A DNA stretch of 64,000 nt from Heliocidaris tuberculata (lineage: Eukaryota; Echinodermata; Echinoidea; Camarodonta; Echinometridae): contig CM046836.1 of NCBI GenBank assembly GCA_025618425.1, positions 16,890,135 to 16,954,134 of the forward strand, given 5' to 3'. Below, one piece after another: positions 3,969-59,411 of the stretch. Numbering within the stretch: position 1 is the first letter of the stretch; the number at the start of each line of letters is the position of its first letter. The notes beneath the pieces are model-generated. The model had not been told where the DNA came from. It saw nothing but the letters and a program-made list of their open reading frames with translations, and did not search any database. The translations under genes were made by a program, and so were the position numbers.

Positions 3969-5015
3969 TAATCTTGATCTTGATCTTGATAAGTACGGCT
4001 CAACACTCCTAGTGGAGTAAAACGAGTCGGGTGGGTGTGCACAAAAATAATGAAATACTAATTATTGATAATGCTGTTGTAGTTTAACTTTGAACAATTT
4101 GGGATTATGAGTGTTAACTATTGTTTCCGGTAACAAATTCCAATCAGTAAGTGTTCTAGGAAGAAAAGAATATTTAAAAGAATCTTTATTAGTGCTAATT
4201 TCGATGTATGATTTATTGTGAGATCTTCTAGTTAATCGAGTGACAGGTTGCAGCAGGTCCCGGACTGGGATTGAGAGATAGCCCTCATGGGCTTTGAAGA
4301 AAGTGGTGAGTCTTGCTATCTTTCTTCTTTCTGCGAGTGTACTCCAACCAAGTTCTTTCATCATTGAAGTGACACTACTCTGCCTGCCATAGTCATTTTT
4401 CGCAAATCTGGCAGCCCTTCTCTGAACTGCCTCCACTTGTGATATGAGATCGTTGGTGTGGGGATCCCAAACTGGTGAACAATATTCCAATGAAGGTCTA
4501 ACTAGAGAACAAAATGCCAGAGATTTGATATCCTCTGTACACTTGTTTAGGTTACGTTTAATAAAGCCTAAGGTTCTATTACTTTTAGCAGTTACACGGT
4601 CAACATGTTTATTCCATTTTAAATTTTTACATAGTTCTACTCCTAGATAAGTGTGTGAGTCAGTTTCAGTAATTTTAATATTGTTTAGTGTATATGAGTG
4701 TGATTTAGGTTTACGTGCATTTGTTACTTTTAAGACAAAACATTTATCCAAGTTGAATTTCATTTGCCATGTTTTTTCCCACAAGCACAGTTGGTTAAGA
4801 TCATTCTGAAGGATTTCAGCATCCTTATCTGATGTAATTGTTCTATATATTACACAGTCATCTGCGAATAGTCTAACTGTAGACTTTATGTTGTCAGGTA
4901 GATCGTTGATGTACATTAAAAAGAGCAACGGACCGAGAACTGTACCTTGCGGCACTCCATAAGCATGCTTTTCAATTCTGCTCAATAAAACAAGACTTTG
5001 TTTGGAAATTGTCAA
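3969..5015 (-). mobile_element. 5'-truncated non-LTR retrotransposon (CR1/Jockey-like), 3' half of RT
   Basis: The minus-strand ORF 5015-4062 encodes about 317 aa from the end of a reverse transcriptase. It has GVPQGTVLGPLLFLMYINDL, the catalytic LFADDCVIY, and the thumb/C-terminal motifs TYLGVELCKNLKWNKHV, LGFIKRNL, RPSLEYCSPVWDP and a final LPRTLTDWNLLP. These are typical of CR1/Jockey-group LINEs. The endonuclease and N-terminal RT are missing, as expected from incomplete reverse transcription. The 3' end carries a short ATCAAG-type tandem tail near 3969-3990. The first Met of the frame is incidental. Confidence 0.85.
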
Positions 5016-5503
5016 AATATGTACATGAGTACTGCGTAAGGTATTTTAATTCTTACTTGCCAAGATATCACTTTGGTTCTTTGAGGGCAAATCTTGCAAC
5101 TCACCGATGAAAGTCTGAGTGGCGAGAACCTTTAGGCTCGCCTTCAGGCCTCCAGCGAATGTGCGTGTAGGCTATGCAGCACGTCAAAAGTACGTAGCCT
5201 GGCCTAGCTGGCTAGCTAGGGGGTAGGCGTACGACCGTGGCCTTGCATTGCTAAATCTCAGCGTGAGGTGGGAAAAGTAACATTTTAAAACGAAATCAGT
5301 AATTGAACCAAAAAATGACAGTGGTTTTTTCAAGCAATCAAAACAGCAGTCACATCATCAGAATCAAAATGATCTGAACTTTCAGCTGCGGCTTCACTTT
5401 TTGACTTTGGTTTATTTGGCATGAAGCTATGAAGAGCAGAAGGCAGAAAAGACCTTGACCAGCAGTCCTCGCTCACACAAAAATGGGAAAAACATAAAAA
5501 AAG

Positions 5504-6662
5504 CAGGGAGGTGAGAGAGATGGAGAATGCTCTTCTCCTCCTCTTTTGATCTGATCCTATCCACCACCAGGATGGAATGTTTTCCCCCGTAATTCAATTA
5601 CTCACACTCCGGCGTTCGCATGGCTCTAAATCTTCTCCGGAAACTGGGTAGGACCCAGCTTCGTGCAATTGTAACAGTTAGACAAAATGGCTTTATTGAA
5701 AATATTCTTGTTCATCGCTGAACAATATCTTCTCAATAATTTACCAAATTCATCACAGTTTAGTCTCTAGAATGTTACAGAAGGGAGCTTGGAGTTACTC
5801 TCCCGAATCCCATTTCCAGATTGAAGGAGTCAGTTCGCCATAATAAATTAATGTACCAACTTCAGCAGATTTCTCACAGAAAACACACAAATACACGCTT
5901 GTGGGACTGAAGTAGATTTGAAGATTCAACTTCAAACTTCCATCTGAGATGCTTCAAAATGTTGCACATTTTCGGAAAATATCAATAATCATACTCCAAA
6001 AACATACTCATAGTTCATCATTATGTAATTACCTACCTCACAACTTTCGAGTCTCTACGTCGATTTCGATCGTTTGAACAGCAAAATGCTCCTCCGAGAT
6101 CGCGGTGTTCAATGAACATGTGCAGACAACACTGTGAACTATGCTTGTGCCAGAAGTTGTGAATATTGTTTTCATGTGACTTTTACTCTATGCAGAGTGG
6201 GCGTTGTGGCGTGCGCCTGTAATCCAGCTAACAGTGGAAGTTATAAACTGATTCAGCGGACCCAGGTTCAAGACTGAGTCACGTCTTTCGGATGGTGACG
6301 TTAAAGGTCGGTCCCAGACGTAAATAATCATATCTGATTGATACACGTCTGTAAAAACCCAATTACACACACACACACACACTGGGTATATAAATGACGT
6401 CATTTAAGCCGCGGTTCACATCACTTGAGAGCCTGATTTTATTGCCTGTGTTTATGCTATCGCCGAGCTCTGCCGTCAGTGTTACGTAAGGTTACTCAAG
6501 ATTTGGGGAGATTTGGTCGCCTCGGGGCGAGCTGCGGTCAGTTTGTCCTTCTGATGACAGATATCTGAGCTGTTATCGCAATCAAATCCTGAATTTTATC
6601 CCATTTAGTTCCACCCTGAGGTAGCTTCTAAAAGAGCAATCTCCATCTCTCTCACCTCCCTG
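5504..6662. mobile_element. hAT-like non-autonomous DNA element
   Basis: CAGGGAGGTGAGAGAGATGG at 5504 is matched in inverted orientation at the right end, so both ends start CAGGGAGG and stay alike for about 30 bp. The flanks are AAAAAAAG on the left and AAAAAAGT on the right, compatible with an A-rich 7-8 bp target-site duplication. Termini starting CAGGG with about 8-bp duplications are typical of hAT elements. There is no transposase inside. A short minus-strand ORF (about 5424-5323, 30 codons) begins MPNKPKSKSEAAAESSDHFD and is unassigned. Confidence 0.65.
6188..6405 (+). repeat. SINE-like repeat with (AC)n 3' tail
   Basis: The head GTGGCGTGCGCCTGTAATCC is followed by a B-box-like GGTTCAAGACT. 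Then comes a conserved-looking body, CGGATGGTGACGTTAAAGGT with CGGTCCCAGACG and AAAACCC, ending in an AC dinucleotide tail. Such GGATG.GACGTTAAA...GTCCC bodies are common in marine invertebrate SINEs. It is nested inside the hAT-like element. The subclass is not determined. Confidence 0.55.
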
Positions 6663-31934: not shown

Positions 31935-33150
31935 CCCCTTATCCTTCATAAAAGGAATAAATCAGAAACTGAGAGCATTGACAAAGAAATAGTTAAACTT
32001 CTCAACAAAGAGGTGATCGAACCGTGCTCTCGACAGCAGGGGGATTTCATATCTAATATTTTCACTAGACCAAAGAAAAATGGCGGTATGCGTTTGATCC
32101 TCGATCTTTTCAGAATTGAATCTGAACGTAATGACCCAACATTTCAAAATGGACAGCATTCACACAGCAACTTACTTGCTGACTCAGAATTGCTATTTAG
32201 CCTCAGTCGATCTACAGGATGCTTACTATTCGGTCCCGATTGACAAGAACCACAGGAAATTCTTGAGATTCACATGGCAAGACAAATGCTGGCAATTCAA
32301 AGCCCTACCTAATGGTCTGAGCACGGCACCAACATTATTCACCAAGATTATGAAACCGGTGTTTGCCCACTTACGAGAATTGGGACACACAGTCATGGGC
32401 TATCTGGATGATACTTTAATTGTTGGCGAATCTAAGACACAAGTAGAACTGGCAATCCAAAATACTACAGAAATTCTCAGTGAATTGGGGTTCAAAGTTC
32501 ATCCTGATAAATCAGTTCTGGAGCCACAGCAAGAGCTCCGATTTCTTGGGTTCATTATGAATACTATTGATATGACAATCAGGCTACCAGAGGAGAAGAT
32601 ACAAGACATATCTGGCATCTGGCTGGACTCATTACATAATGCATCTCCTTCTATCAGACAGGTAGCACAAGTCATTGGGAAACTTGTATCCACTTTTCCA
32701 GCAGTGCAATATGGGCCCTTATATTACCGCAATCTAGAGAAAGATAAGACAGTAGACCTGAAAGTAAGCAAGGGACACTTTGATAGACACATGACCCTCT
32801 CTGATGAATCGAAACATGAACTGTTATGGTGGACCAAATTATCTGGTAGGGCTTCTTCACCTATCAGAAGAGAAAGTCCTACCGTTGAAATCCGCACAGA
32901 TGCGAACGGAGCTGGATGGGGGCAACCAACATGCAGGTTAAACAGGTGGAAGATGGAACGAGAGTGAATTGGCCAGAGCAAGAAACAATGAAATAAACTA
33001 TCTTGAAACGTTGGCAACAGGATTAGGTCTGAAGTCTTTTTGCTCTGACTTACTTGATGCCCATGTGCTTGTGAGGTCAGACAATGTTACAGCTGTCACT
33101 CATCTAAATTGTATGGGCGGCTCCAAATCACTTGCTTGTCACAAAGTAGT
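31935..33150 (+). pseudogene. DIRS reverse transcriptase / RNase H, frameshifted
   Basis: A first frame has IVKLLNKEVIEPCSRQQGDF and GGMRLILDL. The main frame 32116-32967 has VDLQDAYYSVPIDKNHRKFL, LPNGLSTAPTLFTKIMKPV, the catalytic GYLDDTLIVG, LGFKVHPDKS and LRFLGF, then RNase H EIRTDANGAGWG. A third frame continues RNase H with NEINYLETLATGLGLKSF and VRSDNVTAVTHLNCMGG. The end of RNase H and the linker to the YR look deleted. Confidence 0.85.
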
Positions 33151-33161
33151 CATCTTACGCT

Positions 33162-33875
33162 GTGTTAGAGAATAGCATGTGTACAATTGGAAACCACCCA
33201 CTCAAATACCGACTGCTTAAAGGCATATTTAACCTGAAACCATCAAAATCTAGATACACAAGCATCTGGGATGTGAACATTGCTCTCAAATACATGAGGA
33301 AACAATCCCCAGCAACATCGTTGAATCTGAGGGAACTCACCCTCAAATTGTGCCTTTTAATGGCACTCATATCGGCGCAGAGAGTACAATCTCTGCACTT
33401 TTTGAAATTAAGTAACATGGAGCTGAAGCGAGGTTCTGCGAAATTCTATATTGATGATGTCATTAAGCAGACAAGACCAGGTGCGACAGGCCTCTCTCTT
33501 CACCTTAAGGCTTACCAACCAGACAGACGTCTGTGCATTGTTAACTACCTTAAACAATATATTACCGGAACAAAGGATTTAAGGAAACAAGATTATCAAT
33601 TCATTAGTTTCTCTAAACCTCACCAGCGAATTACATCGCAGACAATTTCCAGATGGATTAAGGAATCCTTGACAGCTGCAGGGATTGATACATCTGTATA
33701 TAAATCACACTCAACACGTGCGGCAGCAGTCTCTGCAGCAAAGAGGGCAGACCTGCCTGTTTCCAGTATCCTCAACCAGGCAGGGTGGGCTAACGAACAG
33801 ACATTCAGGAGGTTCTATGACAAACCTTTAATGAAAGGACAGGGAGCCTTCACTACAGTAATTTTAGAACAGTAA
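33162..33875 (+). CDS. DIRS tyrosine recombinase, 237 aa, apparently intact
   Basis: Open to TAA after ILEQ. YR catalytic signature: first Arg in LMALISAQRVQSLHF, the HSTR box (KSHSTRAAAVSAAKRADLP), and the C-terminal block NQAGWANEQTFRRFYDK with the nucleophilic Tyr. This enzyme inserts the circular cDNA of DIRS elements by site-specific recombination. The ATG used is the first in frame; the natural ORF probably began upstream and lost its N-terminus, so activity is doubtful. Confidence 0.85.
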   Translation: MLENSMCTIGNHPLKYRLLKGIFNLKPSKSRYTSIWDVNIALKYMRKQSPATSLNLRELTLKLCLLMALISAQRVQSLHFLKLSNMELKRGSAKFYIDDVIKQTRPGATGLSLHLKAYQPDRRLCIVNYLKQYITGTKDLRKQDYQFISFSKPHQRITSQTISRWIKESLTAAGIDTSVYKSHSTRAAAVSAAKRADLPVSSILNQAGWANEQTFRRFYDKPLMKGQGAFTTVILEQ

Positions 33876-38633: not shown

Positions 38634-39136
38634 TCCTTACTAATCCTTCTAATCGTTATGGTTGGTGCTGATTGAGCATTGTGTCAAGTGTAAGAGAGAA
38701 TTTGCAGTACTTAAGTTTGACCAAACTGATGTGAGATAATACAATCATTTACAAGGATGAATCAATTGTCAAGAAAAAAATCCGGCACTCAGGCAGCACT
38801 GTGGATGCCACATTAAAGGGCGAGTCTATTAAAATTACATTTCATGATGATATCAAAATATTGTGTCAATATTGCTAGAAATCGCACAAACTTTTTATTA
38901 AAAAGATCTGTGCACTTCTCTAAGCTTCGTTGAAATTGCCTAAATCGCACGTTTATCAGGTAGTCTGTCACGCCCCTCGAAAAAGTAGGGACCAGTCACG
39001 TGCCTTGTCAGGTGACCTATGACGAACCAACGGGAACATCCTAGCTAGCAGACGACGATTGTCTGTGTACTATCCAGTGTAGAGAATTTTGTGTTTTTGT
39101 TTGGGAACTTTGGATAGGATTGCATATCTCAAGAAA

Positions 39137-39532
39137 ATGCAGAGGAGATGTGTTGTTGCTAGGTGCAGCAAAGGCACCAACGATGGTGTCAGTCTGCACA
39201 CATTTCCCAAAGATGATGCAACTCGAAAAATTTGGATTTTGAGGATTAAGTTGACTTGAGCTCGAGCTGAGCCTGAGCCGAGCTCAGTGGGATGGCCCTT
39301 CCGCTCATTGTTTGCAGTGACCACTTCAGGGAGGAGGACTTCGATAGTCAGGGGCTGTATATCCAGCTAGGATTTGCGCCCAAGAAGAAGATGCTGCGGC
39401 CGACAGCTATCCCTGTCATCAGGCTGGGAACTGCGGGATGTGGAACTGGAAGCCAAACTCAGGGAGCTGAAAAACAGAGTCGGTACGTCTGCAGTTCTGA
39501 AGCTGGATCTGGAGTCACTGGAGAAAAAGAGG
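39137..39532 (+). pseudogene. THAP-finger gene, exon 1 (frame-broken)
   Basis: The first frame reads MQRRCVVARCSKGTNDGVSL, HTFPKDDATRKIWILRIKLT, then TGA. A second frame gives IVCSDHFREEDFDSQGLYIQ and LGFAPKKKMLRPTAIPVI. A third gives WELRDVELEAKLRELKNRVG, ending LDLESLEKKR at the donor AGG|GTAGGT. Together they make a THAP finger (C-x4-C ... FP ... W ... C-x2-H) followed by a basic patch and a coiled-coil-like segment. THAP fingers bind DNA. Two frame breaks and a stop suggest decay unless short introns were missed. Confidence 0.75.
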
Positions 39533-40083
39533 GTAGGTCTACCGTACCGTACCGTATGTAGACTAATAGACTACTCACCTAGAATGGCCTAACTGTTTAC
39601 CTTAACGTTAGCTATTGATCCTACTGCTGACAAGTGCCAGAGCTACAGCAGAGGCAGAGAAACTCTATCCAACTAGACCCTACATTTACAATGTACATGA
39701 TGTAGCCCCGACCGCATATTGCAGCTATTTCGAGGAAAGGAAATCTAGATGATAGAGCTACACATGTTTTGTAACTAAATATTGGCTTAAAATGAGTAAC
39801 TCCTGAAAAAAAGTGAGGGTGTATTTGCACGAAGCACAAGCCACCCCCCATTATTAAGTTACAAGGTTTGTGTGTGTGTGTGTTTGTGTGTGGGGGGGGG
39901 GGGGAGACATACCCCATCCAGAAATTACATTCATGCTGTATGTATAATACCTGTATGTTTCTGTTCAAATATTAACTCAAGAATGGGTTAATGGATAAAC
40001 ATTACACCACATTGTCCGCGTATATTCTCTGAAAAAAGAGATGATTACAGCTTTTGATCGTAATTTTATATTTTTTAATTTAG

Positions 40084-40221
40084 CTGTTGGAAGAAGTGCT
40101 CTGTCATGAAAAGGAGGAACAGATTGATCCTGACCTTAAGCCAGAATCTCCTCAGCTGACTGATGTGCCACACCCACAGTGTAGTTGGTTGGATGATTCA
40201 GAAGAACCTACAACATCACAG
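40084..40221 (+). CDS. THAP gene, exon 2 (acidic)
   Basis: After acceptor TTTTTAATTTAG the frame reads LLEEVLCHEKEEQIDPDLKP, then a Pro-rich part and SWLDDSEEPTTSQ, ending at CAG|GTAAGC; 46 codons, open. It joins exon 1's last frame in phase (EKKR|LLEEVL). Acidic linker; no domain recognised. Confidence 0.6.
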
Positions 40222-40779
40222 GTAAGCGTCATTTCATGTCTTTTATCTTGACCTTGAAACTTAGAAGTTAAAACACCCCCATAATTGTCAACACATTAGA
40301 ATGTAACATATTGCTCTGTCTGGTAGAATGATGCTTCGATTGCATTTTCGGGGACTCACTTGGACCTCTCACTGCCATTATGAGAGATGTGATTTTAATT
40401 CCAAGAAACATTTAGGGTCTAAAACATGCAACTTTGAAACTGGTAACATTGTGTAACATAGCAAAAACGTTGACCAAAACTCTTAATGTGGATTAAAATA
40501 AGCCATTTAAAGATGGATGTTATTTTCATATTCTATCGAATGGAACTTAAATCTTATTGGTTGCTAATTTGACCCACCCCAAGCAACCTGTTCAAATATA
40601 TTTTTTGGTTGTGGACTACCAGGTCAGTGCATGTGTTGTGCTTTTTGCCATTTTATGGTATATTGTAAATGAATTTGGTGTCAAAATTTGCGCGAGGCTT
40701 GAAAGAAAAAAGTCATGAAACATTGCGGCAAAATCTTTTCGCGATTTGGACTTATTGCGCGAAGCGTTGAGGGAAGGCC

Positions 40780-40866
40780 TCCCAGGCCCCCCCCCCCCCC
40801 CCCCGGCCTAGTTAGGGTTAAAAGGTCTAGATTTACCAATATAACAATTGGGGGGGGGGGGGGGTC
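40780..40866 (+). repeat. Paired poly-C and poly-G runs
   Basis: About 16 C around 40789-40804 and about 14 G around 40850-40863, 45 bp apart, able to pair into a hairpin or form quadruplex on either strand. Confidence 0.9.
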
Positions 40867-41192
40867 AGGGGATGTTAGTCAAGAGGGAATACATGTAGGT
40901 CTTATGCCTGTACCACTGTGTCAGGAGTTGTAGAAGGCAGGCAGTCAGTAGTCCATACCGAAGCTCATTCCATGACCAGTGGCTACGTCAGCATTCTAAG
41001 TCAAGTCTTTGCATTGAGGAGGGCAAAGTCTAATTTTGATACAAATTGGCAAATTATTGTTGATGTCATTATTAAGCTGGTGGTGTCTGTTCCTGACACT
41101 TCAGTTATTTTGTTGTTATAAATTAGTGCAAGCATCTTACTTCCATCTATGTTGTATGTGTTTTTCTTTCTTTCTGTTCAATTTTTCTACAG

Positions 41193-41350
41193 CATATGTT
41201 GATGATCACCTTTCTGCTGTTGTGGAGTATGATGATAGAACTCCTGCACCCCGCCAGCCTTCTTCACCTCCACTTGTGAGTGCCTTTGAGTATCCTCCAA
41301 GGGAGGAAGTTATTGAGCTTCATAGGAGCCGATTTGCTTCTGGCAAGTGA
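41193..41350 (+). CDS. THAP gene, candidate terminal exon
   Basis: After TTTTTCTACAG a frame reads YVDDHLSAVVEYDDRTPAPR, then QPSSPPLVSAFEYPPREEV, IELHRSRFASGK and a stop. Protein-like composition, no known domain. Its frame does not match the exit phase of exon 2, so an exon is missing or the frame is broken. Confidence 0.5.
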
Positions 41351-41412
41351 TCTGATGTATTCCAGCATCCTGGCAATCGAGATTTGAAGTTCATATTCAA
41401 TACAACATTATA

Positions 41413-41584
41413 CAGTTAGCTCTGCCCAAGTCAACCTTCCATAAGTCGAATAATCGCCTAAGTCGAAGCAATTATTCAGACCAGATTATGCAAAACGTGT
41501 GTTATTTCCCTCCTCTAAGTCAAATATCGCTTAAGTCAAACAAATTTCTGTGGTCCCAAGAGCTTCGACTTAGGCAGTTTCCTG
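41413..41584. mobile_element. TA-flanked MITE, same family as 23154
   Basis: CAGTTAGCTCTGCCCAAGTC on the left and ...CTTAGGCAGTTTCCTG on the right, TA on both sides, AAGTCGA-rich interior. More diverged than the copy in the LINE. Confidence 0.8.
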
Positions 41585-41969
41585 TACTTTGCAGATTCTT
41601 TTGGTGCAATATGATGTTTTAGATCATAAACTTATCCCAAGTTTTAGTTCTGTGTTTTCAGTAGTATATTTCTCTGCAGTAAAGAGTATTTTTCTGTCAG
41701 TAAAGGAAAAATGTCACAACGCTTTGGATTTTATATTACTTGTAGAATGTCTCATGAAATTTACATGTAATAAACAGTATGTATGTGGAAAAGATAAGTT
41801 ACTCTTCCTGAGTAATTTGATGTCAAATTTGGATATCATTCATGCATGCATGACCTACTATCTGTCATTGTTCCAATGGAGGTAAATCCCATTTTGTGCT
41901 GATTTTTATGTTAAGGAGAGAACACACGGGTGGGGTTTGCAATCTGTCATTCATGAAAGTATACTACCC

Positions 41970-42400
41970 CTCCCCTCCCTCCCCCCCCCCCCCCCATCCA
42001 TCTTTCCCTCTCTCCCAGCATGGACCTACATGAACTAGAGATCTCTAGTAGGTCCATGCTCCCAGTGACTCTTTCTCTTTTGCTCTCCCATCTATACACA
42101 CATAAACACACCCACCTATGCACCCACTCACACACCCTCCCCCATACAACACACATGCCCGGCCCACAAATACTTTCAAACAGACAGGCATCCTTGAAAC
42201 ACTCCAATGAACATGCAAATTGCATCCAGATGTACAAATGCACACAAATCTCACATGGTCATTTTTCTTCTATCCAAACCTATGATATATTTGCCTGATG
42301 TATGTCTGATGTTGGTGTGTGTATGTGCATGTTTGTGTGTGATATGAATGAGTGTACTGAGGGTGGGTGTCAGTGTGTCTGTGTGTTTGTGCATTTTCAT
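41970..42400. repeat. Low-complexity C-run, hairpin and CA/TG-rich tract
   Basis: Poly-C at about 41983-41996, a hairpin AGCATGGACCTAC...GTAGGTCCATGCT at 42018-42060, then CACACA/TGTGTG-rich sequence to 42400. No gene. Confidence 0.7.
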
Positions 42401-43052
42401 GTGTCTGTATAAAGCCAATCCATTGTACTTTTTTATAAGCTTGATAATTTCATACAACTGCAAGGCTATGTATAGACAACAGAAAATAATACAGAATAAC
42501 ACCTTTTTTCATTTTTTAGTTCATAAAATATAACTGGTGCTGTTATTTACTCAAAGGAATGTTTGACAAATGAATACTATTTCACTGTAGAACTGGGGGC
42601 CATATTCATAAATCACCACTAAGCCAGTTATGTTCTTATTTAATGAGTTTGTAACGAGACTTGGTACTGTTTTATGAATAGAGGCCCTGAAGCTATTGCC
42701 AAGGAAAACCATAATATCATAATTGTGTTAGAATTTTTTTTCAGACCATAAATGACAACATTGACATTCCAACTGTAAATTCTACACAAATAAAATAAAA
42801 TAAAATAGCTTAAGTTGTATGTTTGTGAAACTGTCTTTTCCCAACTGCTAAAACTTTCGGCCTACATTACAAAAAAGAGAGAGCATTGTGAGATTAAGAA
42901 TCGAGAGAAGAGTGCATTTGACATACAGTTGAACCTCGTTATAAGGAGGTCCTTGGGACCAGAGATATTACCCCTTTATATCGAAACCTTGTTATATCAG
43001 GACTGAAAAACAATAGAATAGAAATAAATAGAGAATGTGAGAAAATCACAAC

Positions 43053-43124
43053 GCCCCAGACTGGGATTTGAACCCGGGACCCTGGCTTGTAAGACCAGTG
43101 CTCTACCAACTGAGCTATCCGGAC
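43053..43124 (-). tRNA. tRNA-like sequence (tRNA-Lys-type body, degenerate)
   Basis: TCCGGATAGCTCAGTTGGTA, GAGCACTGGT, loop CTTACAA, GCCAG, GGGTTCAAATCCC. The D arm, anticodon arm and T arm fold, with A box TAGCTCAGTTGG and B box GGTTCAAATCC. The body resembles tRNA-Lys but the loop reads TAC. Acceptor pairing is imperfect, so it is more likely a SINE head or pseudo-tRNA. Confidence 0.6.
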
Positions 43125-43204
43125 TCCTGTCGAGGCAATGTAACATTCTCACATTAGCTCATGAGAATGTTACGTTGTGAGAATGTTACATTGCCTCAAC
43201 GGGA

Positions 43205-43276
43205 GCCCGGATAGCTCAGTTGGTAGAGCACTGGTCATGCAAGCCAGGGTCCCGAGTTCAAATCCCGGTCGGGGTG
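43205..43276 (+). tRNA. tRNA-like sequence, inverted partner
   Basis: GCCCGGATAGCTCAGTTGGT, GAGCACTGGT, loop CATGCAA, GCCAG, GAGTTCAAATCCC. Position 33 is A instead of the near-invariant T and acceptor pairing is partial, arguing against a functional tRNA. It mirrors the copy at 43053-43124. Confidence 0.6.
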
Positions 43277-44278
43277 TTGTGATTTTCTCACATTCTCTTT
43301 TTCTATGATTATTTTCAATCCTACCAATTATGATTATTATAGAATACAAAGAGTTGGGACCAGAAAAAAATCACTTTGTTATAGAGTAGTACCGAAGTGA
43401 TGATGTCATGGTCTTTTGTTCTAGCATAGCGATGGTTCCAAACAAGAAATCCTTGCGCCAGGCATTAATCAGTGGGCTGAAGCCAGGGAATTGTCTTGTT
43501 ACCAACCATTGTCATCTCAGATACTCAGGCTACTTGAAACTGTTTAGAACCAGTTTCCATAGGGATGAATCGCTGCGATGTCACACTTCGCTACTCTATA
43601 ACTAGTGTTTGTCACATCAGTGCTCTTAATATTGAGGTTCCACTGTTAACGTAGTTATCAATAAATTGCAACAAATTATGATCATTTGTAGTGAGAGGCT
43701 GAAAAACAAGTCCAATCCTAACCACTAAACCACAGTAACCTTCCTCTACTAATATGTAATAAAGTACCTGCATGAAATTCATGAAACCATTCAAATGGGC
43801 ATCATGGATAGGATATCCACTACATAAACTGATGAAATTCATTATTCTACAATAATACCCAGTATTTCTAGAACACCTACACTGGAACACTTTTCTATAA
43901 ATGTCTCTTACCAAAATACAATACAACATTATTATTCTAGTCATTAGGTACAGTAAAAACTTGCCTAGTAATTTTGATAACCTTAACTCACATGGGAATA
44001 AAAAAGCTGATCAGCCAATACAGCAATTTAGGAACTCCAGACTGAGGTACCCATCACTCCTCGGTTAAAAGAAGCTATGCGGATAAAATGCCTTGCTCAC
44101 AAGCACTGGACATAGCAGGAATCAAACCCACAACACCTGGATTAAGATGAGCCAAATCGACTACACCAGCTTCTCCACAATGACCATAAATTTGAAAATA
44201 ATTGCTGAAGTGATTGCAACGTGACAAGTTGTCACATTCTGTAGCCAATACTAGTGCTTCGCTAAAGTCCTACTACAG

Positions 44279-44429
44279 CTATGCAAAATGAAAACCTGTA
44301 TGTGTTTCTGAAGGAAAAGTTTCTTGGATTTTCCTCACAGCACAAGATGGCAATGGGACTCTTACATTCCGGCCCAAAAATTTCCAACACCATCTTACCA
44401 GTTGCCGGTATGCAACATGTCTCGATCGC
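44279..44429 (-). CDS. P2X7 C-terminal-like protein, last exon
   Basis: After TTTCAATTTCAG the frame reads (R)RSRHVAYRQLVRWCWKFLG, RNVRVPLPSCAVRKIQETFP, then THTGFHFA and TAG. AYRQ.V.W..G.LG...R..LPSC.V..IR..FP....YTGF is the end of the P2X7 ballast-type cytoplasmic domain found in P2X7 receptors and in many invertebrate P2X7-like proteins without the channel. Joins exon 2 in phase. Confidence 0.88.
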
Positions 44430-44699
44430 CTGAAATTGAAACAAAAATGAAAAGAAATGGAATGCAAATGAGTAAAATTTTATAATTTATTATATGACAT
44501 AAGTGTTAATCCAGATGGCTATTAAACCAAGATTGAGGGATGGATTGAAATGTCAGCAGATGGTTAAAAAAGGAACACTATCCCTTATTTTTCTTGTGAA
44601 AAAATTCCCAATTATTATGAAGTGCAATCATGAATTGGCTATTACATGTATTACATAAAATGATCAGAAACAGAAATGTGAACTGCCCAACTGAAATTT

Positions 44700-44858
44700 C
44701 AAGGATTAAATCCTACCAGGTACCCAATTAACACTTCGGTGGAGAGTGGCAATGGATTAAAGCACTGTCAAAGGACCATAGTGCTGGGCTGAGATTCAAA
44801 CCCTCAACCCTTGGATTGAGAGTCAAGTGAATGAACCACTATACCACAACACCCCAAC
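44700..44858 (-). repeat. tRNA-derived SINE
   Basis: Read on the minus strand: GTGTTGTGGTATAGTGGTTC (A box), GGGTTTGAATCTCAGCCC (B box), then the body CACTCTCCACCGAAGTGTTA with ATTGGGTACCTGG, a tail common in marine invertebrate SINEs. Similar fragments lie at about 44055-44165, 54040-54180 and 61815-61890. Confidence 0.75.
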
Positions 44859-45127
44859 ATATGTTCTCAAATTGGCAAAACATGACCCAAGATGTTTAGA
44901 AAATTTTCATGAGAACAGGACTAAAATTAAACAAAGTGAATGGGACCCATGGGGTATGGCATTCATTATTTTGGGTACAATGCTATAATGGCAGTATAAA
45001 ATACTACAGAAAATTGTCAGGGAAACATAAAATGGGTAATTTCCATGGCAACATTTGGAAAATAAAATTGGGAAAATATGATAAACAAACTCACTCATTA
45101 TTTGTGGCATCTGTTCGGGCATCTTCT

Positions 45128-45129
45128 CC

Positions 45130-45162
<33 letters not shown>

Positions 45163-45245
45163 TATTTATATAGCGCATTTTCCATATATATATATATATG
45201 TTCAAATGCGCTTTACAATGTTATTGACGAAATAAGTGAGTTTTG
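45128..45245 (-). repeat. LINE/SINE 3' tail with (ATT)n
   Basis: Minus strand: CATTGTAAAGCGCATTTGAA, a TA run, GCGCTATATAAATACATT and an ATT-repeat tail. GCGCTATATAAA.. plus (ATT)n is also the 3' end of the LINE at 55.7-59.6 kb, so this is a related 3' fragment. Confidence 0.8.
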
Positions 45246-45286
45246 AGAAGCTTTTTGAAGACATCCAGAGATACTGTTGGGCATAC

Positions 45287-45478
45287 CTGTAGTATGCAGC
45301 TTCCAACACCCATTCATTGGGGCAGACAGAGAAACGTGGATGTGCTTTTATACAGTTTATTTGAGCATCTAAATGTCTTTCGTTATATTTCTCAATCTTG
45401 TCCATGATCCCCTCTGTCTCCTTACAACAAATGGATTCCCGGACAGTGGTCATGGGCACACAGCTGCCACATAGGCAC
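45287..45478 (-). CDS. P2X7 C-terminal-like protein, middle exon
   Basis: After TTCTTTCTTCAG the frame reads CLCGSCVPMTTVRESICCKE, then a helical part, INCIKAHPRFSVCPNEWVLE and AAYYR to the donor ACAG|GTATGC. The (W)C.CG.C...P...E..CC.E and I..HP.F...C.N..VL..A pattern is the Cys-rich zinc-binding core of the P2X7 ballast domain. Open throughout. Confidence 0.9.
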
Positions 45479-45989
45479 CTGAAGAAAGAAACATATGTAG
45501 AAGTATACTTAGATTTTCTTGTTTGTGTTAGTTTGTGTTTTGACCTGGTACTGCACTGTTACACAATGAGATTGAGGCTAGTGAAATCATTGTTTGAATT
45601 CTAACCAAGTGTGAACAAAATATCCTTCATGACTATTGCCAGAGAGGTTACCACTAGTAATACCAGACTCTTCAGACTAGTAATACTGTAGTCTGTACTG
45701 CCCAGCCATGCAATTCAAATTGCAGTTACTGTGGCAAACACTTGTACCTGGCTGTACATTGCAAGCAGCAGTTTTCTACGTCATCATTCATGACTTGGCC
45801 TAGCAATTTACATGTGGAACTAGTAATAGTTTAGGGCCTAGCCCTAGTGGAAACAAACTTGGTTTGATTGAATTTACCAGTCGAACCTCATTATAACATT
45901 GTCCTTGGGGCCACAGAATGCAGAAATTACCTCTCTACATTATAGATTATATAGAAACCTTACCTCAGGACTAAAATACAATAAAATAC

Positions 45990-46590
45990 AAAAGGGTCGT
46001 GACCTGGAAGGAATTGTGGAAAATCACATTGTCCTAGAATGAGATAGAGAGTTTGTAAATTGTCAGCATCAGCTATAATCAGTGCCCTCAAAGGCTCAAT
46101 CCACTCATAGGCCCTTGCCTATGTGGGACTGTGTCCAACATTCACTGTTGCAGCAGTCAAAAACAGACAACAAAATTGCTCTAAGCAAGATTTAATTTTC
46201 GTAAATTTGCTAGCTTACCTGATTCAGGGGCTCTTCAACTCTTACTGTGCCACAAATTTTGGGATTCAGAGTTGAGAGTGAAATTTTACATAATTATTTT
46301 CCTCTCATGTATTGATGATCTAGACTGGAAAAAGGCCTGCTAATACACACAAAAGCTATTGAAGCCTATTCACCCGTAAACGCTACTCTAGAGTACAAGG
46401 TTATCTTCAGATAAGCTTGTACATGTATAAGTGGGCTCAATCAAGCAATCCATAATACGATTACGAGGGTCCAGTTTCATTCAGGGTTTCTTATAAACTA
46501 AATTCTGTTTTATTTTGTCTGGCCCTGACCTGCATTATGTAATACATGTAATATGAGTGAACTATCTAGACTCTTTAGAAGTTTAGTCAA
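45990..46590. other. Intron of the P2X7-like gene, nothing else recognised
   Basis: AT-rich with no ORF or repeat signature beyond a partial pogo-like MITE ending near 45990. Confidence 0.4.
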
Positions 46591-46598
46591 CTAATTAC

Positions 46599-46880
46599 CA
46601 ATTGTTGTTTCCCAATCTTGCGGGCTCGTCAACATGACCCTGTTCCTGAGCTTCCTCACGGGCCACTGCCCCGGGGGTGGGAGGTGCAGCGTCGGGTTCA
46701 TATAGGTACGGGAGTGAACCCAATTGGGGCTGCCGGCTGGGGCTGACGAACGGCTCCTTGATCTTCGCCCTCTTCACTATCTCGCTCGAAACCAGACTCT
46801 GGATCACTAAAAACTGGGCCGGGGCTAGAAATCGGCGACTCCATCTCGAGGTCTGAATCCATAATGATAAGGTCTAACAT
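46599..46880 (-). CDS. P2X7 C-terminal-like protein, first exon (one frame break)
   Basis: Starts MLDLIIMDSDLEMESPISSP or at the inner MDSD (46862), acidic (DPESGFERDSEEGEDQ). In another frame it continues LGSLPYLYEPDAAPPTPGAV, ending EPARLGNNNW at AATTG|GTAATT. PY(L/M)(Y/F)EP.A and RLGN..W immediately before the Cys-rich exon are typical for the family. A 1-nt shift lies between about 46700 and 46800; it may be real or an assembly indel. With three exons the protein would be about 200 aa, cytosolic or nuclear, without transmembrane segments. Confidence 0.75.
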
Positions 46881-47519
46881 TAGTTTTCAGCCACAGTAGG
46901 CAGCAGCACACGAATTTGCTATATCGCTCGATAAGTTTGTTGTTATTAAAAAACTTAGACTTTCATCCAGTCTTTCAATGTAATTGGTTGTTCTCATTCG
47001 TACGCACACAAAGAGTCGCAAGGTACGGTCAGCAGTAAAGCGACTGTCCACTCGTCTACTTGTCTTTTTTCATGGGGAAAAATATTTAGTTTTTTCCAAA
47101 ACGTAAACCTAATCCAAAAGAGGAATTATCATGGGTAAAGTGTCAGAAAAAATGCCAGATTTGTCATTTGACCTCAACTAAAATGTCTAAACAACCTATT
47201 CAAATCCTTTTGGGGGACTTAAAGATTGTCAAAATTGTATAAATCGTGATCTGAAAATGGATAAGTTATCATTCATTGACATTGCCAGCATATTAGTCAA
47301 ATTTAGTGGCTTCGCGGGGGGCTTCCCGTTGCTACGTCAAATCGCACTAGCCAATCAGCTGTCAATTGCGGGGGGTGTTCCCAAATTAGTGAGTTTTTTG
47401 AGCGATTTCTTGTTACTGGGCAATTTTTTTCTGTAAAAATGCCAGAATTGTGTCATTGGACCTATGTACCACATTTTTAGCCCCAATGTTAATTTTAATA
47501 GACTCGCCCTTTAAGGGTT

Positions 47520-48155
47520 AAATGGTCACTCGGGTCAGAAGGGTTTATTTTCATGGCAGAGATTTCCATTTGCACTTCAGGGCATCTAAAATGTGATTTA
47601 CATCACACACATACATGTATCCAATCAACTTCTTCTTCTGCTTTTTCAAATTTAGGTTATTATTACAAAATGTAGTAAAGATTTTTGCAATTTGATGTTA
47701 TAGTTGCTACAACTACAAATTTCTTTACTGACAAAATGGATAAAGCCCTCTGACGTTAGGATCAAATGATCTTGTTAAAATACATGGAAGTTAGAATGAT
47801 ACTATAGACTGCACCACTGAATACAATGAGCAGTTTGAAGGAGCACCTATCAAACATGGTCTTTTCCTTTCATATGAGCTGCAGCTACATGTACAGGGAC
47901 AGATCAAGGTTGGAGAGCCAGACAAGGGCATCATCAGACACAAGATGGCATTACTTGATACCACTTGGAAACTTTATCAGCATCCAGTCACTAATCATAA
48001 TAGGTAATATTTGGTCAGGGTTAAGTCAATCACATACTGCACTGTTTCCTATTTTCCAACTGTGAAGGTTGTTCAAAGACCTTGCATGTTCTGTGTGGCA
48101 TATAAAATGGTAAATGACGACGAGAATAATGCTGTTTTCTAAAAGCACTCTCTCC
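47520..48155. other. Non-coding intron sequence
   Basis: Right flank of the 8.7-kb unit up to the next ZZEF1-like exon. No gene or complete repeat recognised. Confidence 0.4.
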
Positions 48156-55703: not shown

Positions 55704-56015
55704 TTTCATATTCTACTCATCATTAACTAGAATCCGTAGGAGTTTGAGCGCGTAGCAGCAGCTCTCATCTCCTCTCTTTAATTTCTCTATTTATATAGAA
55801 CCTACTGCATGTTATCCAATTATCTTGGAACTACATTTATTATTCAACTCAAGGATTCTACAGGACTGTTTTGGGGGCAGGAATTGGCCTTGTTTTACCA
55901 GTAGATATGGAACTTTGAAATTGGGATCTGCTATGCTGAGGTAGTGAAAGTTGTAGCCATTTTCTACACAGCAGGTTATTGATCACTCAAGCAGACCCAG
56001 CAAGCCAGACTGACA

Positions 56016-59000
56016 ATGCCAGGATCAAACTCTACAATGAAGGCTTTGTGTATTGTTCTTTTGACAATCATTAACCTATTCATCGGCATAGTTCATGTTC
56101 AACCCTGTCTATTCATTGGTGGGGCCCATGAGAGTTTGCTTCTAAGAAGCCCTATTGTCGGGAAGGCACATGCTATCAATGCTAATGCCAAATCTAAGAG
56201 CATCTTCTGTGGTAAAAGAATTGCATACTACAGCAATAGTGACTGTACATTTCGGATTGAACTTCTAAAATCAGGTGATGTTCAGTCTAACCCTGGACCT
56301 GAAGCTGGAAATGGAGAATCAGCAAATTATTCTTGTACGACAGCCCCTCGAACATCACCACATCAGTGTGGTCCATACTCCTACAAGCGGCAAGAACTTT
56401 TGGATATTCGATGCCATGTTAATTATCGATTAGAAAACAAAGTTTGGGCAAACATCAAATCACTTGGAATAAATGCAAGACCGAAAATTAGACGAGGTCA
56501 CAAAGGAGGCCGGAACAGACGCACAAAATGCCTAATTGCAGATGGTACGTCCAAATGTCATTATGGACTGTGGAATGCCCGATCAATTAAAGGAAAAGTT
56601 AGCATGGTGTGTGATCTCATTATTTCTAAACAACTGGATATTCTAGCCCTAACTGAAACATGGCTATGTGGAGATGAGCGGGATAATGGCCCTATCGCAG
56701 ATCTTCTGGCCACTCTTCCTAGTCACACTTTTCTGCACATCCCCAGAAAGAATCGAATTGGTGGAGGTGTTGGAGTATGCTTACGGAAAACTCTTAGAGT
56801 CCAGCAAAACACGCATGGACTCCAGGAGTCATTCGAATATATTGACCTTACAATATCAGGATCTCGTAGAACCCCCCTTCGACTGGTAGTGGTTTACAGG
56901 CCGCAGAGAACTCAGAACCACCAACAAACAGCTTCATTATTCATTCGTGAGTTGTCATCATATTTAGAGCTTCTTGTGTCTGATCCGAGTAGACTTTTAA
57001 TCACTGGTGATTTCAATTTTCATGTGGATGATGAGGACGATAGGGAAGCCCAAGCATTCTTAGAGCTGATCAATTCATTCAATTTCGTGCAACATGTTGC
57101 AGCTTCTACTCATGAATTGGGGCATACACTAGACCTGGTCTTGTCACGAGCTTCGGATAACCTTGTCAGTGATGTAACAACCACAGAGTACTTACCATCT
57201 GATCATGCTGCTGTCACCTGTTCATTGAACACCAAGAAACCAGATCCTGTCAAGTTGCGAATTACCACGCGTAATATAGATGCCATAAATGTTGATGCAT
57301 TCTGTAGAGAAATTCTTCAGTCAGAATTGTATACTAATCCTTCTTCTGACTTGAACACTCTAGTTGATCAGTACGAACATGTGCTCAGAGATCTCCTGGA
57401 TAAGCGTGCTCCCCTCCTGTCGAAGGAAGTAACTTGTCGACCTAATGCACCGTGGTATAACGATGAACTGCAAAAAGCAAAACAAAACCTGAGACGTTTA
57501 GAACATAAAAAGCGATCTTCTGGGCTTGAGGTTGATAATCAGAACTTCAGGATTTTTCGTAGTCAGTACTGTCACCTCATACGAGAAGCCAAGAAAAACT
57601 TTCATGTAAGACAGTTCAGAGATTGTGATTCCCGTGATCTTTTCAAGAAAGTTCAGAAATTGTGTGATGCTATAAATCAAACTGTGGTTCTCCCATCTAC
57701 TGACTCAGATGAGCTGCTCTCTGAGCGTTTCTCCAAATTTTTCGTGGAGAAGATAAGTTGCATCATTGATAAACTGCATACAGTTTCAGCTTCTGCAGGC
57801 TCACCTTCAGATGATCGACATACTGACCAGCGATGCAGTGTTTCTTTGGGAAAGTTTACTCCAATTTCAGTGCAGCAAGCAATTAAACTCATAGCTGATT
57901 CTCCATCTTCGACTTGTGCACTCGATCCTATCCCCACTTCTCTTTTGAAACGGTGTAAAAGTGTGATTGGTCCGATCATTGCTCAAATCATTAATTTATC
58001 GTTTGATCAAGGATGGTTTCCTGATTGCTTGAAGCATGCCCAGGTCAAACCACTTTTGAAGAATAGTAAATTGGATGCAGATGACCTGAAAAGTTATAGA
58101 CCAATTGCCAATTTAAAGTTTATCTCTAAAGCTCTTGAGCGTGCAGCAGCCGCACAGATACAGGGTTATCTGGCATTTAACAATTTGAATCCTACCATGC
58201 AGTCTGCATATCGAAAAAATCACAGCTGTGAGACGGTTCTGCTGAAGGTTTGCAATGACATCCTCCTTGCATTGGACTGTGGTCAAGAAGCAGTTCTGCT
58301 GATGTTGGATTACTCAGCAGCCTTTGACACTTTATCCCACAGCATCTTACTTTTTCGGCTGCAAAACAGATTTGGATTCGGTGGTGCTGCTCTCAGTTGG
58401 ATTGAATCATTCATTATGGGTCGTTCTCAGTCTGTCGTCATTAGAGGGAAGACGTCGGCTAGCCAAGCACAGCTACGTGGAGTACCACAGGGCTCGGTGT
58501 TGGGCCCGATTCTCTATACGATGTATTCCTCACCACTTGAAGATATCATCAAGGCACATGGATTTGGTCATGCTATGTATGCTGACGATACCCAACTGTA
58601 TGCCACAGTTAATCGTGGTGATTGGCCCAACGTAATTCCTAAATTAGAGGCGTGCCTGCAGGAGATATCGGTATGGTCCTCGGAAAATGACCTTTTGATA
58701 AATGAAGGAAAAACTGAACTGCTTCACTTGTCCTCTCGTCATCGTACAAGAAGTTTGCTCCCTCCTATCACTTTCAATCATTCCAGTCTTCAGCCGACAA
58801 AGTGTGCACGGAATCTAGGGGTTATGATGGACGATCAACTGATAATGTCAAGTCATATAAACAAGATATGCCGTTCTGCTTCTTATGGGTTGTATAAGAT
58901 CGGAAAGATAAGGCGTTACCTTGATCAGGACACCACAGAAAGACTTGTTCATGCTTTTGTGATTAGCCATATTGATAATTGTAATGGTTTATTGTACGGT

Positions 59001-59411
59001 TTGTCTGATACACTGATCTGTAGACTGCAGCGAATACAAAATTCTGCTGCTAGGCTCATTACTAGAACTAAGTCACGAGAATCAGTTTCCCCAGTACTTC
59101 GTAATTTACACTGGCTACCAGTTAAAGACAGATTAATATTTAAACTTCTTGTTATAGCATTCAAATGTCAGAATAAATTGGCTCCTCTCTATTTACAACA
59201 GCTTCTTAATGAGTATCATCCAGTTAGGCAGCTTCGTTCCAGTTTTAAACAATTGTTTGTCCCCCTTACAGTTTCTACAGTATCATATGGTCATAGAGCA
59301 TTTCAGCATGCAGTCCCCCAACTATGGAACAAACTCCCTTGTAATGTCAAAGAATGCTCTTCCCTTGATCAATTTAAGTCTTGTCTAAAATCTTACCTAT
59401 TTAAAGTATAA
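56016..59411 (+). CDS. LINE ORF2-type protein: 2A-like motif, APE endonuclease, reverse transcriptase
   Basis: 1131 aa. Residues 9-27 are hydrophobic (signal-peptide-like: CIVLLTIINLFIGIV). Residues 86-95 are SGDVQSNPGP, a 2A-like motif. The APE-type endonuclease follows: LWNARSIKGK (about 185), LALTETWL, GDFNFHVDD (about 331) and PSDHAAV (about 395). RT: SYRPIANLKFISKALERAAA, SAYRKNHSCETVLL, LDYSAAFDTLSHSIL, GVPQGSVLGPILYTMY, catalytic MYADDTQLYA (about 855). The C-terminal region ends with LWNKLPCNVKE...FK..LK.YLF. EN nicks the target and RT copies the RNA there (target-primed reverse transcription). All core motifs look intact. CR1/L2 affiliation is by motif style. Confidence 0.93.
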   Translation: MPGSNSTMKALCIVLLTIINLFIGIVHVQPCLFIGGAHESLLLRSPIVGKAHAINANAKSKSIFCGKRIAYYSNSDCTFRIELLKSGDVQSNPGPEAGNGESANYSCTTAPRTSPHQCGPYSYKRQELLDIRCHVNYRLENKVWANIKSLGINARPKIRRGHKGGRNRRTKCLIADGTSKCHYGLWNARSIKGKVSMVCDLIISKQLDILALTETWLCGDERDNGPIADLLATLPSHTFLHIPRKNRIGGGVGVCLRKTLRVQQNTHGLQESFEYIDLTISGSRRTPLRLVVVYRPQRTQNHQQTASLFIRELSSYLELLVSDPSRLLITGDFNFHVDDEDDREAQAFLELINSFNFVQHVAASTHELGHTLDLVLSRASDNLVSDVTTTEYLPSDHAAVTCSLNTKKPDPVKLRITTRNIDAINVDAFCREILQSELYTNPSSDLNTLVDQYEHVLRDLLDKRAPLLSKEVTCRPNAPWYNDELQKAKQNLRRLEHKKRSSGLEVDNQNFRIFRSQYCHLIREAKKNFHVRQFRDCDSRDLFKKVQKLCDAINQTVVLPSTDSDELLSERFSKFFVEKISCIIDKLHTVSASAGSPSDDRHTDQRCSVSLGKFTPISVQQAIKLIADSPSSTCALDPIPTSLLKRCKSVIGPIIAQIINLSFDQGWFPDCLKHAQVKPLLKNSKLDADDLKSYRPIANLKFISKALERAAAAQIQGYLAFNNLNPTMQSAYRKNHSCETVLLKVCNDILLALDCGQEAVLLMLDYSAAFDTLSHSILLFRLQNRFGFGGAALSWIESFIMGRSQSVVIRGKTSASQAQLRGVPQGSVLGPILYTMYSSPLEDIIKAHGFGHAMYADDTQLYATVNRGDWPNVIPKLEACLQEISVWSSENDLLINEGKTELLHLSSRHRTRSLLPPITFNHSSLQPTKCARNLGVMMDDQLIMSSHINKICRSASYGLYKIGKIRRYLDQDTTERLVHAFVISHIDNCNGLLYGLSDTLICRLQRIQNSAARLITRTKSRESVSPVLRNLHWLPVKDRLIFKLLVIAFKCQNKLAPLYLQQLLNEYHPVRQLRSSFKQLFVPLTVSTVSYGHRAFQHAVPQLWNKLPCNVKECSSLDQFKSCLKSYLFKV
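56271..56300 (+). other. 2A-like ribosome-skipping motif
   Basis: Encodes SGDVQSNPGP, matching the D-V/I-E-x-N-P-G-P consensus except Gln for Glu. In active 2A sequences the ribosome skips the Gly-Pro bond, releasing the upstream peptide. Here that would free a 94-residue leader with an N-terminal hydrophobic segment. 2A-like sequences are documented in sea urchin non-LTR retrotransposons. Activity of the Gln variant is uncertain. Confidence 0.8.

What the first reader, a model, noticed from the sequence alone, without database searches (positions are those of the whole stretch)
38813..47514. TTAA-bounded 8.7-kb unit with inward-facing THAP and P2X7-tail-like genes
Seen: the same TTAAAGGGCGAGTCTATTAA inverted repeat at both ends, a THAP-finger gene just inside one end and a P2X7 ballast-type gene just inside the other, both reading inward. 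Established: Kolobok DNA transposons use TTAA targets and THAP-finger transposases; P2X7-tail-like proteins without a channel occur as large unexplained families in invertebrates. Inference: the P2X7-like gene is transposon cargo or a second transposition protein, which would explain such expansions. No DDE domain was found, so this copy is deleted or the catalytic exon is diverged.
Basis: partly seen in the sequence, partly recalled or inferred. Interest (0 to 1): 0.87.

Follow-up and report, generated by a model that had tools for sequence, protein, structure and literature searches.

The report
Deleted Kolobok transposon carrying P2X7-tail gene
This stretch of what is probably a sea urchin genome is a single jumping-gene insertion of the known Kolobok type carrying broken copies of two genes, one of them related to the tail of the P2X7 receptor; the link between that tail and these transposons was already published in 2022, so this is a good further example and not a new phenomenon.

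Summary
Window 38813-47514 is one insertion: 25-bp perfect terminal inverted repeats, and a paralogous empty site on the same contig with exactly one TTAA. THAP and P2X7-ballast (P2RX7_C) genes lie just inside the ends and face each other. A sister family (TIR ..GTCAATTA) has nine fetched two-ended loci, about five insertions; nine of nine carry the same inward pair. Genome-wide, 18 of 54 ballast-exon hits face a THAP hit within 15 kb (0.27 pairs expected; copies are not independent). At C7 and C21 a DDE-transposase-like exon lies between THAP and the ballast gene, as in a complete element. No DDE was detected in the window copy, its two genes are frameshifted, and KolX exon 2 is split by an insertion. 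So it is a decayed, non-autonomous Kolobok, probably moved by transposase from relatives. Kojima and Bao (2022, PMC9587614) already reported that Kol0-lineage Koloboks encode this protein (KolX), that it has the ballast fold, and that P2X7 arose by fusion with it. What is added: a probable echinoid example with an empty site, copy history and a conserved N-terminal PYxFEP motif. KolX function remains untested.

The parts
38813..38837 (+). left TTAA plus terminal inverted repeat
   Evidence: perfect 25-bp inverted pair with 47490-47514
47490..47514 (-). right terminal inverted repeat plus TTAA
   Evidence: the flanks joined at one TTAA match an empty site
39138..39532 (+). THAP exon (N-terminal half in one frame, C-terminal half in another: frameshifted); donor GTAGGT follows
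   Evidence: PF05485; alignment with L007 and nine sister loci; boundaries read by eye
40084..40221 (+). candidate second exon of the THAP gene (LLEEVLCHEK...), in phase with the end of exon 1
   Evidence: read; kept in L007 and L008 (97.8% and 95.7% protein identity); no match in the sister loci
41193..41345 (+). candidate third exon (..YVDDHLSAVVEYDD..FASG), possible GC donor; its phase does not fit exon 2, so tentative
   Evidence: open in the window, L007 and L039; no catalytic domain found after it
46599..46862 (-). KolX exon 1 (acidic N-terminus, LPYLYEPD motif); the ATG frame is shifted relative to the rest
   Evidence: ATG-to-donor length 264, out of phase, and no Met in the required frame
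45271..45478 (-). KolX exon 2, first part (CLCGSCVPM...AQQY), cysteine-rich region
   Evidence: PF20478; 91.4% to L039
45133..45270 (.). about 138-bp insertion inside KolX exon 2 with (AAT)n and (AT)n repeats
   Evidence: exon 2 is contiguous in the nine sister loci (two with a 1-base gap) but split in the window
45095..45132 (-). KolX exon 2, second part (YGEDARTDATNNE)
44279..44429 (-). KolX exon 3 (RSRHVAYRQLVRWCWKFLGRNVRVPLPSCAVRKI...GFHFA, stop)
   Evidence: 94.6% to L039
43026..43302 (.). two inverted tRNA-like (SINE-type) copies at the point where L007 and L008 part from the window copy
   Evidence: inverted repeats, tRNA-like at 43053-43124 (-) and 43205-43276 (+), blast breakpoints

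Best explanation
The unit at 38813-47514 is a single TTAA-site insertion of a Kolobok-type DNA transposon that carries broken remains of a THAP gene and of a P2X7-ballast (KolX) gene, and it likely moved with transposase supplied by more complete relatives in the same genome. Shown: one insertion with TTAA duplication; two inward genes; the same pair in nine sister loci; broken frames; DDE-like exons between THAP and ballast hits at C7 and C21. Inferred: in a complete element the THAP finger of a THAP-DDE transposase binds the inverted repeats and the DDE domain cuts and inserts at TTAA. Also inferred: KolX is a zinc-stabilised accessory protein acting with the transposase (transport, end bridging or target handling), with its conserved N-terminal PYxFEP motif as a docking site. 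The window copy lost the DDE part, either before moving in trans or by deletion after landing, and decayed.
For: 25-bp perfect TIR with TTAA. Empty site with one TTAA. Exact TIR 6 times in 897 Mb, 0 in the reversed control. Sister TIR family with nine loci bounded on both sides; nine of nine hold inward THAP and KolX exons. 18 of 54 PF20478 hits face a PF05485 hit within 15 kb, none has one on the same strand, 0.27 pairs expected under uniform placement. PF20700 hits sit between THAP (+) and KolX (-) at C7:29020481 and C21:11529388 (28.3 bits each), and a weaker one faces KolX at C2:42308382 (20.1 bits; 31.7 with its neighbours). No DDE family in the three + frames of window 38900-44500 or of L039. 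A profile of 22 KolX homologues matches solved P2X7 chains, best E 1.5e-9, residues 466-593. Published precedent PMC9587614.
Against: The DDE exons of the complete-looking elements could not be fetched, so it is not shown that they share these TIRs, and their scores are near the cut-off (28.3 against 26.5 bits). Only two of the inward THAP/KolX places have a PF20700 hit between the genes; C51, whose THAP and KolX hits score the same as those of C7, has none listed, nor do C9, C13 and the C6 array. The strongest PF20700 hit (C15:23907749) lies on the same strand as its KolX neighbour, 13 kb away, which does not fit the layout. A diverged DDE exon in the window unit is therefore not excluded; minus frames were not scanned. 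L007 and L008 have THAP without KolX. No sister-family empty site was obtained.
Confidence: 0.92

Rival explanations
1. The unit is a piggyBac element or relative, which also uses TTAA; [quoted passage not shown]
For: TTAA target; PMC9587614 reports such piggyBac families.
Against: Those piggyBac proteins lack most of the seven cysteines, whereas the cysteines conserved among KolX homologues are kept here. Termini are AG...CT, the 5'-RR/YY-3' pattern given for Kolobok and not piggyBac. The partner gene is THAP. No piggyBac family search was run.
Confidence: 0.03
2. The family is autonomous: the DDE domain is present but too diverged or too split by introns to be seen.
For: PF20700 sees the C7 and C21 exons only weakly (28.3 bits); the THAP gene has introns.
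Against: No open frame of more than 132 aa between 41345 and 44280, Pfam scans of + frames show only THAP apart from a weak YwiC match in L039, and no single frame spans the THAP domain in any of the 12 loci examined that carry it.
Confidence: 0.06
3. The ballast gene is a host gene picked up as passenger cargo, with no part in transposition.
For: Within the sister burst KolX exons 2-3 diverge about as much (1.5%, 1.4%) as the rest of the element; copies without KolX exist (L007, L008); dN/dS between the two TIR families is 0.53, exon 2 0.39 and exon 3 0.97.
Against: The gene recurs in the same orientation opposite THAP at other places in this genome and is described for the Kol0 lineage of several phyla, as expected of a native transposon gene.
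Confidence: 0.2

Closest known systems
Kol0 lineage of Kolobok DNA transposons (Kolobok-1_XT type; Kojima and Bao 2022, PMC9587614)
   Same: TTAA duplication, 5'-RR/YY-3' ends, and a second gene (KolX) with the P2X7 cytoplasmic ballast; THAP is known from Kolobok transposases (PMC6004289)
   Different: The window copy has no detected DDE domain and both genes are broken; echinoderms are not named among Kol0 hosts in the parts read (they are listed there for KolobokP)
P2X7 receptor cytoplasmic ballast / NANOR (Rump et al. 2020, PMC7016195, passages; Pfam P2RX7_C)
   Same: Cysteine-rich ballast region, profile match to solved P2X7 chains 466-593
   Different: No channel part found; the gene sits inside transposon ends
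XKol transposons of Xenopus (PMC6004289, passages)
   Same: TTAA, AG termini, THAP plus DDE transposases; full-length copies of 6.8-12.2 kb in the table rows I saw
   Different: The passages seen do not mention a second protein; vertebrate host
KolobokP (PMC9587614)
   Same: Same superfamily; found in echinoderms
   Different: [quoted passage not shown] the window unit showed neither in the searches run

Membership tests
Kolobok superfamily (as non-autonomous copy) | 4-bp TTAA target duplication | tested here: met
   TTAA at both ends and a single TTAA in the paralogous empty site
Kolobok superfamily (as non-autonomous copy) | 5'-RR ... YY-3' termini | tested here: met
   AGGG...CCCT in 11 of 11 loci bounded on both sides (these were picked by a TIR pattern); rule from PMC9587614
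Kolobok superfamily (autonomous member) | DDD/E transposase with C/DxxH | tested here: not met
   no DDE family in + frames of 38900-44500 or of L039; none of 20 PF20700 hits at E <= 10 is in the window. Sensitivity is limited; minus frames not scanned
Kolobok superfamily | THAP finger in the transposase gene | tested here: met
   PF05485 in a broken frame; L008 pieces joined by hand score 44.7 bits
Kol0 lineage | encodes KolX with ballast fold | tested here: met
   PF20478 E 1.9e-9; profile of 22 homologues hits P2X7 chains. By sequence only: the predicted model was poor
Kol0 lineage | position in the DDE phylogeny | not testable with these tools
KolobokP | long terminal direct repeats of about 450 or 660 bp | tested here: not met
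   longest direct repeat shown in 38700-47600 is 40 bases (20 of 24 families shown)
P2X7 receptor | P2X channel domain | tested here: not met
   Pfam finds only PF20478 in the last-two-exon model; no whole-unit search for a channel domain was run on the minus strand

The most novel reading that the evidence does not exclude
Two related TIR families in this genome spread as transposase-less two-gene elements (THAP remnant plus KolX). KolX was kept through their split because it helps the element that encodes it, for example by bringing borrowed transposase to its own ends, which would make KolX the part of the system that acts in cis.
Probability: 0.08. Interest if true: 0.55.

Novelty: new member of a known kind. 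Interest (0 to 1): 0.28.

Why it matters
It adds a further, probably echinoid, genome in which P2X7-tail-like genes sit in Kolobok elements. 'P2X purinoceptor 7-like' annotations in invertebrates should therefore be checked for transposon ends before they are read as receptor or immune gene expansions; here 18 of 54 ballast-exon hits face a THAP hit. It also offers an empty site, a recent sister burst and complete-looking elements in one genome, where the role of KolX could be studied.

Tried and rejected
The unpadded THAP protein gave 431 candidates and none at E <= 0.001. KolX as a single sequence against solved structures: 0 matches; the profile found P2X7. Structure prediction of a homologue (P0002) was poor (mean pLDDT 50.8), so no fold search was run. 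The middle, inverted copy of KolX exon 2 in the sister family was considered as part of a THAP-KolX fusion; it is about 91% like exon 2, has no counterpart in the window copy's blast map, and is frameshifted in the six of nine loci where its start was matched, so it was set aside as a relic. Selection on KolX within the burst was rejected: exons diverge about as much as the rest. L051 and L052 were fetched in search of a complete element: L051 holds a single-exon KolX whose PF20700 partner lies just outside the piece, L052 a multi-exon P2X7-like gene without a THAP match. Of 239 places within 3 mismatches of the TIR (control 87) only part was listed and only some loci were fetched; most of the 3-mismatch places listed are another sequence, TTAAAGGGCCAGTCTAATGA.
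Full report
Observation. The 20-mer occurs twice in the window, inverted, at the stated coordinates, and the perfect inverted repeat is 25 bp. In the whole 897-Mb assembly (unnamed, G000) it occurs six times exactly, and zero times read backwards. The window lies at C5:16890135-16954134. The best named relatives of the ballast protein are sea urchin proteins (Diadema setosum, 64% over 75% of the query; Lytechinus pictus, 60% over 77%), so the host is probably an echinoid; this is inference.

One insertion. The flanks joined at a single TTAA (window 38703-38816 plus 47515-47624) match C5:16658673-16658891 continuously at 95% over positions 1-219 of 224. The fetched empty site shows exactly one TTAA at the junction. 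The 8.7-kb unit therefore entered one copy of a duplicated stretch and duplicated TTAA. Its ends are AG...CT.

Genes. Left: a THAP domain on the + strand (PF05485), with candidate exons at 39138-39532, 40084-40221 and, tentatively, 41193-41345. The frame shifts inside the THAP domain. Right: a three-exon gene on the - strand at 46862-46599, 45478-45095 and 44429-44279. Its last two exons carry the P2X7 intracellular (ballast) domain (PF20478, E 1.9e-9). The splice joins give the W-C-x-C-G and NERxRHVAYRQL sequences seen in homologues. Exon 1 is out of frame with the rest and has no Met in the required frame. Exon 2 is interrupted by an insertion of about 138 bp. Both genes are broken in this copy.

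Other copies. L007 (C2:48010848-48019132) has both TIRs and the left half at 92.6%, but its right half holds satellite DNA, chiefly a 51-bp array, and has no KolX match. L008 appears to be the same insertion in a duplicated stretch, judged from shared flanks; it too has THAP and no KolX. Three single-ended pieces (L009, L048, L050) match KolX exon 1 only. The 3-mismatch search found a sister family with TIR TTAAAGGGCGAGTCAATTA. Nine of its loci are bounded on both sides (L036-L042, L043+44, L045+46; 7.6-12.9 kb), and nine of nine carry inward THAP and KolX exons. Shared flanks reduce them to about five insertions. In an alignment of eight of the nine loci, substitutions between insertions are 1.3-2.1%, a recent burst. 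Among five insertions KolX exons 2 and 3 differ by 1.5% and 1.4%, about as much as the rest, so there is no sign of selection after insertion. Between the window and L039, KolX exons 2-3 have 8.5 synonymous and 15.5 non-synonymous changes, dN/dS 0.53 (exon 2 0.39, exon 3 0.97): mild constraint at most. No single frame spans the THAP domain in any of the 12 loci examined that carry it (window, L007, L008, nine sister). The frame from the MDSD start of KolX meets a stop in 10 of 10 loci with a whole exon 1 (window and nine sister). Nine of nine sister loci do have another Met in the required frame; in L038 that frame is open from an upstream Met through the whole exon, and its exons 2 and 3 are open, so a readable KolX in some sister copies is possible.

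Where the transposase is. PF20478 gives 54 hits in the genome; PF05485 gives 150, the best-scored 150 of 779 candidates. Neither list includes the window copy itself. Of the 54, 18 face a THAP hit within 15 kb, none has a THAP hit on the same strand, and outward pairs occur only in one tandem array on C6; uniform placement predicts 0.27 pairs in all. The 18 are not independent: eight are sister loci, four are in the C6 array, and one (C20:10484183) pairs with the THAP hit of a neighbouring copy. PF20700 (named Mutator in the library; that it covers the DDE region of Kolobok relatives is recalled) gives nine hits at E <= 0.001 and 20 at E <= 10. Two of them lie 3.5 kb after a THAP hit and 7.6 kb before a facing KolX hit (C7:29020481, C21:11529388), and a weaker one faces KolX at 7.2 kb (C2:42308382, 536-aa open frame). 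That layout, THAP then DDE on one strand and KolX on the other, is the layout of the window unit with the DDE added. Against it: C51, C9, C13 and C6 pairs have no listed PF20700 hit, and the strongest hit (C15:23907749) has its KolX neighbour on the same strand 13 kb away. None of the 20 hits is in the window or a fetched sister locus. Pfam scans of the three + frames of window 38900-44500 and of L039 show only THAP, apart from one weak YwiC match (E 0.29) in L039; minus frames were not scanned.

The ballast protein. Of 68 candidates, 56 scored E <= 0.001; those with names are echinoderms, molluscs, cnidarians, an acorn worm and one fish. A profile of 22 of the 56 matches four distinct P2X7 chain sequences, best E 1.5e-9 over residues 466-593. 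A short N-terminal motif P[YWF]x[FY]EP occurs in 19 of 56 homologues, and in 18 of the 20 that are at least 175 aa long; the window has LPYLYEPD in exon 1. The passages I read do not comment on this motif; I ran no literature search for it.

Prior knowledge. Kojima and Bao 2022 (PMC9587614; outline, first three of six parts of the text, section 16 and found passages) state that Kol0 elements encode a DDD/E transposase plus KolX, that KolX resembles human P2X7 476-595 with the ballast fold, that P2X7 arose by fusion of a P2X4-like gene with KolX, and that ballast proteins seen across animals had not before been pointed out as parts of Kolobok. PMC7016195 (passages) describes ballast domains in invertebrates; the word stem 'transpos' does not occur in it. 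PMC6004289 (passages) describes THAP-DDE Koloboks with AG ends and TTAA in Xenopus. Searches for Kolobok with KolX, P2X7 or sea urchin (open-licence papers only) listed no title or abstract about an echinoid KolX element; two papers holding both Kolobok and sea urchin (PMC10742642, PMC9004415) were seen in the listing only.

Verdict. It is a decayed non-autonomous Kolobok of the KolX-bearing kind: a new member of a known kind. The step from 'encoded by the transposon' to 'works in transposition' remains open here and in the literature I saw. On rechecking, facts were mended but none required a change of the odds.

Noticed in passing
G000 C6:42052357-42071810: Four units about 5.77 kb apart, each with a THAP hit (+) and a ballast hit (-) 2 kb apart, facing each other: a tandem array of a compact THAP/KolX element.
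   Followed up: partly
G000 C10:26888169-26892953: Three ballast-exon hits 2.3 kb apart on one strand without a listed THAP neighbour: possibly a tandem gene cluster free of a transposon.
   Followed up: no
L039:4243-4490 and 6235-6484: Inverted second copy of KolX exon 2 (about 91% alike), present in nine of nine sister loci; could form a hairpin transcript.
   Followed up: partly
genome-wide (G000): Many near-matches TTAAAGGGCCAGTCTAATGA to the TIR among the places listed, possibly the end of an abundant related short element.
   Followed up: no
window 43026-43302: Two inverted tRNA-like SINE copies where L007 and L008 part from the window copy, suggesting a SINE-linked rearrangement.
   Followed up: partly
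window 32098-33872: Reverse transcriptase frame followed by a tyrosine-recombinase (phage integrase family) frame: looks like a DIRS-type retrotransposon.
   Followed up: no
window 55983-59408: 1142-aa open frame with endonuclease and reverse transcriptase: looks like a non-LTR retrotransposon.
   Followed up: no
window 4065-5045: Reverse transcriptase fragment on the minus strand.
   Followed up: no
KolX homologues P0001-P0056: Conserved N-terminal motif P[YWF]x[FY]EP in 18 of 20 homologues of at least 175 aa; possible docking motif.
   Followed up: partly
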